DNA of 33,957 nucleotides from Methylotenera sp. (GTDB lineage: Bacteria > Pseudomonadota > Gammaproteobacteria > Burkholderiales > Methylophilaceae), in contig JACMNB010000023.1 in the NCBI GenBank assembly GCA_014378845.1, positions 1 through 33,957 of the forward strand, read 5' to 3'. The translations under genes and the position numbers were made by a program. The notes under the pieces were generated by a model. It worked only from the letters and a program-made list of their open reading frames with translations, had not been told where the DNA came from and did not search any database. Shown piece after piece: positions 27,321 through 33,957 of the stretch; position 1 is the stretch's first letter; every line of letters begins with the position of its first letter.

Positions 27321-27348
27321 AAACCCGCTAGTTTTATTTAGCGGGTTT
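27321..27348 (-). terminator. Rho-independent terminator of the argS-SPOR-dsbA unit
   Basis: AAACCCGCTA and TAGCGGGTTT form a perfect 10 bp stem with an 8 base loop. On the minus strand it is followed by CTTTTT. It lies 13 bp beyond the alternative (frameshifted) dsbA stop and about 90 bp beyond the annotated one. Confidence 0.82.
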
Positions 27349-27361
27349 GCAGGTGATTTAC

Positions 27362-27450
27362 TTAATAGTTGGTGCTATTTTTTGGCAAAACTTTAACTGA
27401 TGACGGAACTTTGGGCTTAACGGCAGTTTTTGCCGTACTTACTTTTTTAC
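27362..27450 (-). other. Putative -1 frameshift site and basic tail of dsbA
   Basis: At the dsbA end the minus strand reads GTA AAA AAG TAA. The heptamer A AAA AAG (27448-27442) is the dnaX-type -1 slippery sequence in the right phase. Five bases after it lies a hairpin, ACGGCA-AAAAC-TGCCGT (27436-27420). A -1 slip, or one extra A in the A6 run, opens a frame of 26 residues rich in Val, Lys, Thr, Ser and Pro (starts VSTAKTAVKPKVP, ends NSTNY, stop at 27364-27362). Seen: slippery site, hairpin and open frame. Inferred: either programmed frameshifting or a lesion/sequencing error in a formerly longer gene. Confidence 0.5.
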
Positions 27451-28104
27451 GGCGGCGGCCTTGTCTGTGCGTACGTTGCCAATAATATAATCGGCCACTT
27501 TTAGCGCTTGCTCGTTACCGCCCGCTTGCGTGGCTGATGTTATATATTTACCATCAATCACTAAGCTTGGCACGCCAGTTGCACCAGAAGCGCGAAAAAT
27601 CTGCGCAGCGCGGTTAAGGTTGGTGCTAGTGCTAAACGATTTAAACGCTTGTTCTACCTTCAATTTATCTAATCCGCTTTGCGCCGTTACCCAGGCTATA
27701 GTAGCCGCCTCGTCAGTTGGGTTTAACGATTTAGTTTTATGGATGGCATCAAAAAGTTTTGTATGCAATTTTTCGCCTACGCCTAATGTTTCCATCGCGT
27801 AAAACGCTTTGGCCATTGGTGCCCAACTGGCATTTGGCAAGCCTGGCATGCGTTTAAAGTAAACATCTGCAGGTAGTTTTTTTACCCAAGCGCTAAGCGG
27901 CGCTTCCATATGGTAGCAATGTGGGCAGCCATACCAAAAAATCTCCATCACCTCAATTTTGGCTGGGGTTTCGGTAGAAATGGGCTGTGCAACCGCTTCA
28001 AAATCGGTGCCGATTTTTGGCGCATCGGCAAAAGCGGCCGACATGGTTAAACTGCTAAACGACATGAGTAAAACGGCTAAACCGTTTTTAATACTGATTT
28101 TCAT
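27439..28104 (-). CDS. dsbA: Thiol:disulfide interchange protein DsbA
   Basis: DsbA introduces disulfides into proteins in the periplasm. The 221-residue precursor has a signal peptide (about 1-26, cleavage likely after AFA), a thioredoxin fold with active site CPHC (Cys60 and Cys63), an inserted helical domain, and the cis-Pro loop TGVPSLVIDGKY (Pro about 179). AGGAATG precedes the ATG. It is the last gene of the argS-SPOR-dsbA unit. The 3' end is unusual: the last codons AAA AAG TAA form a slippery heptamer followed by a hairpin, with an open basic frame beyond (see 27362-27450). Confidence 0.95.
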   Translation of the reverse strand: MKISIKNGLAVLLMSFSSLTMSAAFADAPKIGTDFEAVAQPISTETPAKIEVMEIFWYGCPHCYHMEAPLSAWVKKLPADVYFKRMPGLPNASWAPMAKAFYAMETLGVGEKLHTKLFDAIHKTKSLNPTDEAATIAWVTAQSGLDKLKVEQAFKSFSTSTNLNRAAQIFRASGATGVPSLVIDGKYITSATQAGGNEQALKVADYIIGNVRTDKAAAVKK

Positions 28105-31873: not shown

Positions 31874-33957
31874 ATGTTGTTATGCCCTATTTTGCAAGTT
31901 GCATTAGACGTGCCCTTAAAACGCACGTTTGATTATTTGGCGGGCGATTTTGTGGCGCGCATTGGTAATCGAGTAATCGTGTCGTTTTCGGGGCGCAGTT
32001 TGGTGGGCGTGGTTGTTGGCTTAGCGGACAGCTCTGATTTTCCGATTGAGAAATTAAAGTCTGTAAGTCATGTTTTTGATGAATTGGTTTTTGATGCGGC
32101 CAGCTTTAAACTCATGCAGTTTTGTGCCGATTATTATCATTATCCACTTGGTCAAGCGCTCATATCGGCGCTACCACTGCGTTTGCGGCAACTTAAACCT
32201 GCTGTTTCGCGTAAGGCGTTTGCTTATAGTTTGTTGCCGAACGTAGATATAAGCCAAACACCTACAAAAAAGGTTGTTTTGCATCGCATTATCACTGCCC
32301 TGCAAGCCGCACCAATGCTAGGAGGTGCGGAGCTCGCTTTTATCTCTTCTAGCTGGAAAAAAGCGATTTTAGAGCTTAAAAGTTTAGGCTTGGTAGCCGA
32401 GCATGAAGTGCTGGCAGTTAAAGCTTCTATGCCAAGCGCGAATGTGGCGCCAACCTTGAATGACGAGCAACAGAAAGCGATTGAGCAAGTGTTAGCGCTT
32501 ACTCACACGTTTAAACCGTGGTTGCTGCATGGTATTACCGGCAGCGGCAAAACCGAGGTTTACATTCAAATTTTGCGGCAAATTTTGCAAAACCCTCAAG
32601 CTCAAGTTTTAGTATTAGTGCCAGAAATAAACCTCACTCCGCAGCTAGAAGCGCGTTTTAGAAGCCGCTTAGCACAATATCCGCTGGTGACTTTACATAG
32701 CAATTTAAGCGAGAGTGAACGCCTGCAAAATTGGCTTGCCGCCAGCTCTGGCGCGGCTAAGATTGTGATTGGCACGCGTTTAAGTGTGTTTACGCCGATG
32801 CCAAATTTAAAATTAATTGTGATAGATGAAGAGCATGATGGCAGCTACAAACAGCAAGATGGCATGCGCTACCATGCGCGTGATGTGGCGATGGTGCGCG
32901 CGAAGCAGTTAAATATTCCGATTGTTTTGGGTAGTGCCACGCCTAGTTTAGAGACTTGGTATAACGCTCAAAAAGGCCAATATGGACTGTTAAGCCTAAA
33001 ACAACGCGCGGTTGAAAACGCGCAACTACCCAGTATTTTTTGTATTGATACTGCTAAAAGCCCAACAGAAAACGGTTTATCGCCAATTTTGGTAAAAGCT
33101 TTGCGTGAGCGTTTGAGCCGTGGCGAGCAAAGTTTATTATTTTTAAACCGACGAGGCTACGCGCCTGTGCTGCATTGCAATGCGTGCCAGTGGGCTTCAA
33201 GTTGCACACGCTGTTCAGCAAAATTAGTCGTACATTTAAGCCAAAAGCGCCTTAAATGCCATCACTGCGGGCATGAGCAAAAAATACCCGCGCAATGCCC
33301 AAGCTGTGGCAATGCCGACATTCGACCCGTTGGGCAAGCCACACAACGCTTAGAACAAACGCTCAAAACTTTGCTGCCAAACGCAAGAATCGCCAGAGTT
33401 GACCGCGACAGCATGCGCAGCAAAGATGCGCTAACTGACATGCTGGCTAGCGTACATGCGGGTGAGGTGGATATTTTAATTGGCACACAAATGCTGGCTA
33501 AAGGGCATGATTTTCCTAATTTAACCTTGGTAGGCGTATTGGATACCGATAGCGCGTTGTACAGCCCCGATTTTCGAGCTAGTGAAAAATTATTTGCGCA
33601 GTTAATGCAAGTGGCTGGCCGCGCTGGCCGCGCTGAGAAGCCCGGCGAGGTATTGATACAAACCGCGTTTCCGCAATATGCCTTATTTAATGCGCTGCGC
33701 AGCCAAGATTATGTGCATTTTGCCGATGAATTGTTGACTGAGCGCGAAACTATGCACTTTCCACCAACCAGCTTTTTTGCGTTGCTGCGTGCAGAATCAA
33801 ACAAATTTAGCGAAGTAGAAAAGTTTTTACATTTGGCTAGAAACGCAGCGCGTAATTTAACGCTTAATTTAAATAGTGAGGTGATGGTGTACGATGTTAT
33901 TCGGCCTCAATTAGAACGTTTAAAGAACATGGAGCGTGGCCAACTGTTGTTGCAAGC
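31874..33957 (+). CDS. priA: Primosomal protein N' (replication restart helicase PriA), 3' truncated by window
   Basis: PriA recognises stalled or broken forks and reloads the replisome. The 694 visible codons start MLLCPILQVALDVPLKRTFDYL and include the 3'-binding domain, Walker A GITGSGKT (220-227), the DEEH box (318-321), the zinc-binding cysteines (CNACQWASSCTRC from about 435, CHHCGHE, CPSCGN), and the helicase end motifs GTQMLAKGHDFPNLTLVGVLDTD and QVAGRAGRAEKPGEV. The frame runs off the right edge shortly before the expected C-terminus. A decayed duplicate of its 5' end lies 1.2 kb upstream. The ATG at 31874 has no strong ribosome site but gives the family N-terminus. Confidence 0.95.
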   Translation, partial: MLLCPILQVALDVPLKRTFDYLAGDFVARIGNRVIVSFSGRSLVGVVVGLADSSDFPIEKLKSVSHVFDELVFDAASFKLMQFCADYYHYPLGQALISALPLRLRQLKPAVSRKAFAYSLLPNVDISQTPTKKVVLHRIITALQAAPMLGGAELAFISSSWKKAILELKSLGLVAEHEVLAVKASMPSANVAPTLNDEQQKAIEQVLALTHTFKPWLLHGITGSGKTEVYIQILRQILQNPQAQVLVLVPEINLTPQLEARFRSRLAQYPLVTLHSNLSESERLQNWLAASSGAAKIVIGTRLSVFTPMPNLKLIVIDEEHDGSYKQQDGMRYHARDVAMVRAKQLNIPIVLGSATPSLETWYNAQKGQYGLLSLKQRAVENAQLPSIFCIDTAKSPTENGLSPILVKALRERLSRGEQSLLFLNRRGYAPVLHCNACQWASSCTRCSAKLVVHLSQKRLKCHHCGHEQKIPAQCPSCGNADIRPVGQATQRLEQTLKTLLPNARIARVDRDSMRSKDALTDMLASVHAGEVDILIGTQMLAKGHDFPNLTLVGVLDTDSALYSPDFRASEKLFAQLMQVAGRAGRAEKPGEVLIQTAFPQYALFNALRSQDYVHFADELLTERETMHFPPTSFFALLRAESNKFSEVEKFLHLARNAARNLTLNLNSEVMVYDVIRPQLERLKNMERGQLLLQ

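What the first reader, a model, noticed from the sequence alone, without database searches (positions are those of the whole stretch)
27362..27450. dsbA ends in a dnaX-like slippery site, stop and hairpin, with an open basic frame beyond
The minus strand reads A AAA AAG directly before the TAA, then 5 bases later a perfect 6 bp hairpin (ACGGCA / TGCCGT). This is the layout of a -1 programmed frameshift signal. The -1 frame encodes 26 residues of Lys/Val/Pro/Ser/Thr-rich sequence and stops 13 bp before the terminator hairpin, a more natural 3' end than the 90 bp trailer left by the zero-frame stop. Possible outcomes: two DsbA isoforms, one with a cationic tail; or a one-base loss in an A7 run of a longer ancestral gene; or a sequencing error.
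Basis: partly seen in the sequence, partly recalled or inferred. Interest (0 to 1): 0.72.

Follow-up and report, generated by a model that had tools for sequence, protein, structure and literature searches.

The report
Conserved frameshift adds tail to DsbA
The gene for DsbA, the enzyme that makes disulfide bonds in the bacterial envelope, ends in many of these methylotrophs with a slippery site where some ribosomes probably slip back one base, pass the stop codon and add a short conserved tail, a use of frameshifting that we did not find described.

Summary
Of 140 Methylophilaceae dsbA genes read, 54 end in A_AAA_AAG at the zero-frame stop (one with a codon between). In the three main genera 50 have it directly before the stop; codon usage predicts about 3. 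51 of the 54 have a -1 frame tail of 14-40 codons, against 23 of 86 without the heptamer. Tails are conserved within clades..ALPKKVK in the window's genus..WFKALYQKLFNW in a sister genus..KIKLPSRLK in a third. pN/pS is 0.20-0.40 in the -1 frame, 0.5-1.7 in the other frames. In tail-bearing genes the -1 stop, not the zero-frame stop, lies at the usual distance from the terminator. In the window's genus a stem 5-7 nt after the heptamer keeps pairing while its sequence changes (10 of 12).

Best reading: dnaX-type -1 frameshifting makes two DsbA forms, plain and tailed; the tail perhaps holds part of the pool at the membrane (inferred). No product has been measured. In one genus 27 of 33 tail genomes also hold tRNA-Lys(CUU), which should lower slippage.

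The parts
27439..28104 (-). dsbA, zero frame, 221 aa, ends ..AAAVKK-stop (short product)
   Evidence: Pfam PF01323 41.9 bits over its cut-off 25.6; residues 27-212 match solved DsbA 3h93 at E 1.4e-41
27442..27448 (-). slippery heptamer A_AAA_AAG in the zero frame (last two Lys codons)
   Evidence: same heptamer at the dsbA end in 54 of 140 family species read
27439..27441 (-). zero-frame stop TAA directly after the heptamer
   Evidence: after the heptamer in the 53 species that have it directly before the stop: TAA 39, TAG 13, TGA 1
27365..27442 (-). -1 frame tail, 26 codons: VSTAKTAVKPKVPSSVKVLPKNSTNY
   Evidence: tails of relatives conserved in the -1 frame
27362..27364 (-). -1 frame stop TAA, 13 nt before the terminator stem
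   Evidence: -1 stop to terminator stem median 19 nt in the genus (terminator found in 11 of 12 tail genes)
27420..27436 (-). local hairpin ACGGCA/AAAAC/TGCCGT, 5 nt after the heptamer
27428..27434 (-). 5' arm GGCAAAA of the stem that keeps its position between species (candidate stimulator)
27384..27390 (-). 3' arm TTTTGCC of that stem (it also encodes part of the tail)
27459..27462 (-). AAGG, 10 nt upstream of the heptamer: weak Shine-Dalgarno-like candidate
   Evidence: read; a group comparison of anti-SD pairing was inconclusive
27321..27348 (-). intrinsic terminator of dsbA

Best explanation
The dsbA mRNA carries a conserved programmed -1 ribosomal frameshift at its last two codons. Some ribosomes decode AAA AAG, meet the stop and release normal DsbA (221 aa here). 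Others slip back one base on A_AAA_AAG (tRNA-Lys re-pairs with AAA AAA), probably helped by the adjacent stop and a downstream stem-loop, and continue for about 14-30 codons to a stop shortly before the terminator. This yields a second DsbA with an added C-terminal tail. Shown here by sequence: the conserved heptamer and stop, coding constraint on the tail in the -1 frame, association of heptamer and tail, a stem whose arms change together in two genera, and a terminator placed relative to the -1 stop. Inferred: that ribosomes really shift, how often, and what the tail does. I think it most likely holds part of the DsbA pool at the membrane or another envelope polyanion, because the tails are either strongly cationic or amphipathic and aromatic.
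For: A_AAA_AAG directly before the dsbA stop in 11/14, 35/51 and 4/6 species of three genera against 0.4, 2.1 and 0.3 expected, and 0/50 in four genera that also end in KK. -1 run of 14-40 codons in 51 of 54 genes with the heptamer, 23 of 86 without (Fisher p 1.8e-16, not corrected for kinship; inside g7 33/35 against 5/16); 9 independent phylogenetic pairs on supported branches, median p 0.031, range 0.016-0.375. Coding signature: pN/pS in the -1 frame 0.40, zero frame 0.85, +1 frame 1.71 (18 g7 tails); 0.20, 0.52, 1.06 (last ten codons of 7 g1 tails); on the tree, 25 g7 tail cores need 55 amino-acid changes against 75.2 +/- 6.0 when columns are permuted (3 of 2000 as low), with 59 third-position changes against 37.2 (3 of 2000 as high). 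Terminator spacing: tail-bearing g7 zero-frame stop to stem median 81 nt, -1 stop to stem 27 nt; tail-less g7 zero-frame stop to stem 25 nt; g1 tail genes 89 and 19 nt; g35 18 nt. Stem starting 5-7 nt after the heptamer in 10 of 12 g1 and 3 of 4 g10 tail loci at p <= 0.05 against base shuffles; same test in genes without tail: g1 0 of 2, g10 1 of 2, g7 1 of 18, g35 4 of 22, g36 0 of 13, g37 0 of 9. Stem pairs vary as A-T/G-C/C-G/T-A at several positions. Fold more stable than synonymous-codon shuffles in 40 of 49 tails (z<0; 19 of 49 at p<=0.05). 22 of 49 tail loci have no ATG/GTG/TTG anywhere in the open -1 stretch, so independent initiation at these codons cannot make them. No in-frame tail motif in 158 genes. 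In E. [quoted passage not shown]
Against: No expression, ribosome-profiling or protein data. The window's own fold is ordinary (z -1.26; +0.2). Only 6 of 33 g7 tail loci have a significant near stem, although 27 of 33 have z<0 against synonymous shuffles. tRNA-Lys(CUU), expected to reduce slippage on AAG, is matched in 27 of 33 g7 tail genomes and 2 of 12 g1 (counted by hand). An upstream Shine-Dalgarno is not clearly present. Three heptamer-bearing genes lack a tail (L019, L123, L159). Two genes keep a related tail with A_AAA_AAA (L161, L192). Counting runs over 40 codons and run-ons through the next gene as well, 42 of 86 genes without the heptamer have a long open -1 frame. The two tail-less g1 genes keep a long trailer (76 and 99 nt to the terminator), unlike tail-less g7. 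Tail sequence is conserved within clades, not between genera, and g7 itself holds more than one type.
Confidence: 0.88

Rival explanations
1. One-base lesion: an ancestral longer gene lost a base in the A run, and the -1 frame is the remnant of its in-frame C-terminus.
For: The -1 frame is open and protein-like, as a lesion would leave it.
Against: No zero-frame tail motif in 158 genes (two motif patterns); relatives end at the same place in the zero frame, in KK in 116 of 121 genes of seven genera; purifying selection on the tail is seen across many species behind the same stop.
Confidence: 0.02
2. Transcriptional slippage on the A run rather than ribosomal slippage makes the mRNA that encodes the tail.
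For: An A6 run is at the site; both mechanisms are known at poly-A sites (PMC3711429, passages).
Against: The run is A6 followed by G; the cited paper gives A runs longer than 7 for transcriptional realignment. A7 genes, which should slip better in transcription, have mostly no tail (g1 2 of 2, g7 6 of 7, the one g35 gene; L161 of g7 and L192 of g10 keep one), whereas A_AAA_AAG has it in 51 of 54.
Confidence: 0.05
3. The selected feature is RNA only (a stem that protects the mRNA or slows termination), and the tail peptide is incidental.
For: The stem shows signs of RNA-level selection and shares bases with tail codons (TTGCC = Leu-Pro).
Against: The -1 frame shows low pN/pS and third-position excess in g7, where the near stem is mostly weak; the last ten codons of seven g1 tails have pN/pS 0.20.
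Confidence: 0.05
4. The shift is real, but the tail is a degron or a way to adjust DsbA dose (extended DsbA is destroyed by periplasmic proteases) rather than a targeting tail.
For: 21 of 33 g7 tails end in an aromatic residue (tails listed); tail-specific proteases such as Prc are recalled to favour nonpolar C-termini (from memory, no call).
Against: g1 and g10 tails mostly end in Lys-rich polar sequence; clade-specific conservation of a whole amphipathic stretch is more than a degron needs (inference).
Confidence: 0.2
5. The tail is a separate small gene (own start) overlapping the dsbA end.
For: 27 of 49 tail loci have some ATG/GTG/TTG in the open -1 stretch.
Against: 22 of 49 have none; the open stretch is closed by a stop 4-33 codons upstream of the heptamer; heptamer and tail go together.
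Confidence: 0.02

Closest known systems
E. coli dnaX -1 frameshift (tau/gamma), and the reported reversed dnaX form in a few bacteria with the zero-frame stop directly after the shift site
   Same: A_AAA_AAG heptamer and a downstream stem-loop; the reversed form also has the stop next to the site and makes the longer product by shifting (PMC5009743 and PMC3711429 passages).
   Different: The host gene is an exported oxidoreductase, not DNA polymerase III; the added part is a 14-30 residue tail; tRNA-Lys(CUU) coexists in one genus. dnaX of five of these genomes has no in-frame A_AAA_AAG.
copA (E. coli) and csoS2 chromosomal -1 frameshifts
   Same: Chromosomal, non-mobile genes making two products by -1 shifting (PMC5009743 passages).
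   Different: There the shift makes the shorter product; here the longer, tailed one.
IS3-family transposases and phage lambda tail gene G/GT
   Same: A -1 shift adds an extension to the first product (lambda: passage; IS3: passage and recall).
   Different: Mobile-element or virion genes; here a housekeeping envelope enzyme.
DsbA (thiol:disulfide interchange protein)
   Same: PF01323, CPHC active site and VPS loop in the sequence, best solved match 3h93.
   Different: An alternative C-terminal tail in part of the product; none recalled for described DsbA.

Membership tests
-1 programmed ribosomal frameshift, dnaX type | X_XXY_YYZ heptamer in the zero frame, conserved | tested here: met
   A_AAA_AAG in 54 of 140 species, far above codon-usage expectation
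-1 programmed ribosomal frameshift, dnaX type | new-frame product under purifying selection | tested here: met
-1 programmed ribosomal frameshift, dnaX type | downstream RNA structure a few nt after the heptamer | tested here: inconclusive
   met in g1 (10 of 12) and g10 (3 of 4), weak in g7 (6 of 33); synonymous-codon test z<0 in 40 of 49
-1 programmed ribosomal frameshift, dnaX type | upstream Shine-Dalgarno-like stimulator | tested here: inconclusive
   mean anti-SD energy -2.9 (g1 tail), -4.0 (g7 tail), -0.6 (g10 tail) against -0.6 (g1 no tail), -2.5 (g7 no tail), -1.8 (g35)
-1 programmed ribosomal frameshift, dnaX type | single tRNA-Lys (UUU) reads AAG | tested here: inconclusive
   only UUU found in the window's genome, 93% complete; CUU pattern in 2/12 g1, 0/4 g10, 27/33 g7 tail genomes; in G001 and G004 neither pattern was found
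-1 programmed ribosomal frameshift, dnaX type | both products detected | not testable with these tools
   needs reporter, profiling or proteomics
transcriptional slippage site | A run of 8 or more | tested here: not met
   A6; of 11 A7 genes 2 keep a related tail
frameshifted pseudogene / lesion | relatives with one continuous frame into the tail | tested here: not met
   two tail motif patterns sought in the last 30 zero-frame residues of 158 genes, none found
DsbA | DsbA-like thioredoxin domain | tested here: met
   PF01323 over its cut-off; NCBIfam DsbA equivalogs hit but below their curated cut-offs (54.8 of 290, 54.4 of 279 bits)

The most novel reading that the evidence does not exclude
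A conserved slip site acts as a platform for interchangeable C-terminal targeting tails: it splits the DsbA pool into a free periplasmic form and a membrane-held form, and the tail sequence has been replaced between genera (cationic Lys/Pro in one, mostly an amphipathic Trp/Phe helix in another, short cationic in a third) while the shift site stayed.
Probability: 0.3. Interest if true: 0.82.

Novelty: new member of a known kind. Interest (0 to 1): 0.7.

Why it matters
Confirmed programmed frameshifts in ordinary bacterial chromosomal genes are few, and this kind is easy to miss because the zero frame alone looks like a normal gene. It would give a central envelope-folding enzyme two C-terminal forms in a large group of methylotrophs, set by the ribosome. 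It offers many natural variants (intact, A7, heptamer lost, tail lost, with and without tRNA-Lys CUU) to test what makes A_AAA_AAG work, and suggests that sites at the very end of genes deserve a systematic scan.

Tried and rejected
Lesion, sequencing error, separate small ORF and RNA-only explanations were tested and are rejected or disfavoured (see rivals). Single-window statistics do not support the finding; the comparative data do. Rfam gave nothing at the site (one hit, 20.6 bits against a gathering score of 69, elsewhere in the gene). A common hairpin for g7 by alifold is weak (7 pairs, -2.1 kcal/mol over 18 sequences); I do not claim one shared structure. The 60-nt folding z-scores are lower in groups without tail (g35 -4.30, g36 -3.25, g7 no tail -2.75) than with it (g1 -1.74, g7 -1.61; g10 -2.63); I read this as the terminator falling inside the segment in tail-less genes and do not use it either way. 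The viral-contig scan returned no relative. Of 178 family genomes with a dsbA hit, 140 were read; 38 were not fetched, 28 of them in the divergent genus g28, of which one was read (L206). The 18 loci outside the grouped set (two are Methylophilales by title, L079 and L080) have no A_AAA_AAG before the stop (0 of 18). The tail's function was not testable: structure prediction was off.

Literature: full-text searches listed no paper on frameshifting in dsbA or in Methylotenera; some searches listed 20 of 410, 20 of 41 and 20 of 493 papers. PMC10304878 and PMC7311414 hold both search terms but were seen only in the listing. PMC5009743 (first 300,000 of 475,107 characters held): passages only, 'dsb' 0 times. 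PMC3711429: passages only, 'dsb' and 'disulfide' 0 times. PMC4066793: passages only, 'dsb' 0 times. Supplementary tables of these papers could not be read, so a listing there is not excluded.

Full report
WHAT IS THERE. The minus strand at 28104-27439 encodes a 221-aa DsbA (PF01323; best solved match 3h93). Its last codons are GTA AAA AAG TAA, so A_AAA_AAG stands in the zero frame directly before the stop. Five nt after the heptamer begins ACGGCA-AAAAC-TGCCGT. The -1 frame continues for 26 codons and stops 13 nt before the terminator stem at 27348-27321. Alone they prove little: 22 AAAAAAG occur in the window against 23.8 expected.

RELATIVES. A search of 187 genomes of the family found dsbA in 178; I read 140 of these, together with contigs of named records. 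Deduplication of the loci left 158 distinct ends, 140 in the family's genus groups and 18 others. 54 of the 140 have A_AAA_AAG at the end of dsbA; in one of them, L005, a TAT codon lies between heptamer and stop. They are 12 of 14 in the window's genus g1, 35 of 51 in g7, 4 of 6 in g10, and one each in g5, g8 and g30 (one gene read from each); none of the other 66.

THE HEPTAMER IS SELECTED. From codon usage inside the same genes, A_AAA_AAG would end 0.4, 2.1 and 0.3 genes in g1, g7 and g10; it directly precedes the stop in 11, 35 and 4. Four genera whose DsbA also always ends in Lys-Lys have it in 0 of 50. AAG is the rarer Lys codon elsewhere in these genes (12, 17 and 25% of Lys codons in g1, g7 and g10) yet is kept here.

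THE TAIL IS CODING. -1 runs in the heptamer genes cluster at 14-30 codons (51 of 54); 23 of 86 genes without the heptamer fall in the 14-40 range, their runs being scattered from 2 to 98 codons or running on through the next gene; counting those longer runs too, 42 of 86. The peptides form families: g7 ..T.WFKALYQKLFNW..EESNWLTSFFKRMFNR; g1 ..KVLPKKVALPKKVK..KKIALPTRIK; g10 ..KAADKIKLPSRLK. Of 33 g7 tails, 25 match one aromatic core pattern and two longer ones resemble it; six do not, three of them sharing a Lys-rich form. The g8 and g30 tails resemble none of these. pN/pS is 0.40 in the -1 frame, 0.85 in the zero frame and 1.71 in the +1 frame for 18 ungapped g7 tails; 0.34, 0.98 and 1.46 for 38 close pairs; 0.20, 0.52 and 1.06 for the last ten codons of seven g1 tails. 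On the protein tree, 25 g7 tail cores need 55 residue changes, against 75.2 +/- 6.0 for permuted columns, 3 of 2000 as low.

HEPTAMER AND TAIL GO TOGETHER. On the tree (quick method), independent pairs that differ in the heptamer differ in the tail the same way (mean 5.7 of 9 pairs, 0.1 the other way; median p 0.031, range 0.016-0.375). A g7 clade of six with A_AAA_AAA or less has no tail, nor have L145 (AAAAAGG) and L129 (AAAGAAG). Exceptions: L019, L123 and L159 have the heptamer and no tail; L161 and L192 keep a related tail behind A_AAA_AAA.

THE mRNA END IS BUILT AROUND THE -1 STOP. In tail-less g7 genes the zero-frame stop lies a median of 25 nt before the terminator (found in 17 of 18). 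In tail-bearing g7 genes the zero-frame stop lies 81 nt before it, but the -1 stop 27 nt (33 of 33). In g1 tail genes the values are 89 and 19 nt (11 of 12); in g10 52 and 8 nt (3 of 4); in g35 (no A_AAA_AAG) 18 nt (22 of 22). Against this pattern, the two tail-less g1 genes keep 76 and 99 nt, and the two g10 genes outside the tail class 33 and 52 nt (one of these, L192, has a tail behind A_AAA_AAA).

STIMULATORS. In g1 and g10 a stem starts 5-7 nt after the heptamer, with arms that change together: AGGCAAAA/TTTTGCCT, AGCAGGTG/TACCTGCT, AGGCAG/CTGCCT, TCGGCAA/TTGCCGA, AAGGCAAC/GTTGCCTT (10 of 12 and 3 of 4 loci at p <= 0.05 against 100 base shuffles each; pair types by column). Genes without tail reach this in 0 of 2 (g1), 1 of 2 (g10), 1 of 18 (g7), 4 of 22 (g35), 0 of 13 (g36) and 0 of 9 (g37). 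In the window this stem is GGCAAAA (27434-27428) with TTTTGCC (27390-27384) and a 37-nt loop; the local ACGGCA hairpin is an alternative. In tail-bearing g7 genes it is weaker and less regular (6 of 33). Against synonymous-codon shuffles, 40 of 49 tails have z<0 and 19 reach p <= 0.05; the window's own does not (z +0.2). AAGG 10 nt upstream of the heptamer is a possible Shine-Dalgarno element; group comparison is inconclusive. The window's genome shows tRNA-Lys(UUU) only (93% complete). CUU-type tRNA is matched in 2 of 12 g1, 0 of 4 g10 and 27 of 33 g7 tail genomes (counted by hand; G001 and G004 showed neither pattern), which should lower slippage in g7 (PMC5009743, passage).

ALTERNATIVES. 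A lesion would need relatives with a continuous frame: none of 158 by two tail motifs. A separate small gene would need a start: 22 of 49 tail loci have none of ATG/GTG/TTG in the whole open stretch. Transcriptional slippage is unlikely on A6 when 9 of 11 A7 genes have no related tail. An RNA-only signal does not explain the codon signature.

FUNCTION. g1 tails are cationic (mean net charge +6.6); g7 tails are more amphipathic (mean hydrophobic moment of the last 11 residues 0.53, against 0.18 in g1) and 21 of 33 end in an aromatic residue. DsbA is exported (general knowledge), so such tails would meet the outer face of the inner membrane or envelope polyanions. I infer tethering of part of the pool (about 0.3-0.4); a degron or dose role is the main rival (0.2).

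KNOWN OR NEW. The mechanism is that of dnaX. The gene, the optional tail on an exported enzyme, and the exchange of tails behind a fixed slip site were not found in the searches listed under Tried and rejected. dnaX of five of these genomes lacks an in-frame A_AAA_AAG. I file it as a new member of a known kind.

Noticed in passing
window 32266-32272, + strand: Another A_AAA_AAG in the zero frame of a 703-aa open frame with a 26-codon -1 run; 561 codons from the stop, conservation not checked.
   Followed up: no
L269-L273 (dnaX of G191, G142, G078, G000, G009): dnaX of these Methylophilaceae has no in-frame A_AAA_AAG (0 of 5); two have in-frame runs of A, in G078 a run of about ten, of the length that transcriptional slippage uses.
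   Followed up: partly
187 family genomes: tRNA-Lys(CUU) is matched in some genera and not in others (94 of 187 genomes), a natural experiment for A_AAA_AAG decoding.
   Followed up: partly
L123 (G151), dsbA 3' end: Heptamer kept but the -1 run stops after 3 codons while the +1 frame is open for 16 codons: recent indel or MAG error.
   Followed up: no
dsbA 3' ends of g36, g37, g11 and g6 loci: In several of these the SDR gene downstream begins within a few tens of bases of the dsbA stop (-1 frame runs on into it), whereas in g1, g7 and g35 a terminator was found after dsbA in most genes.
   Followed up: no
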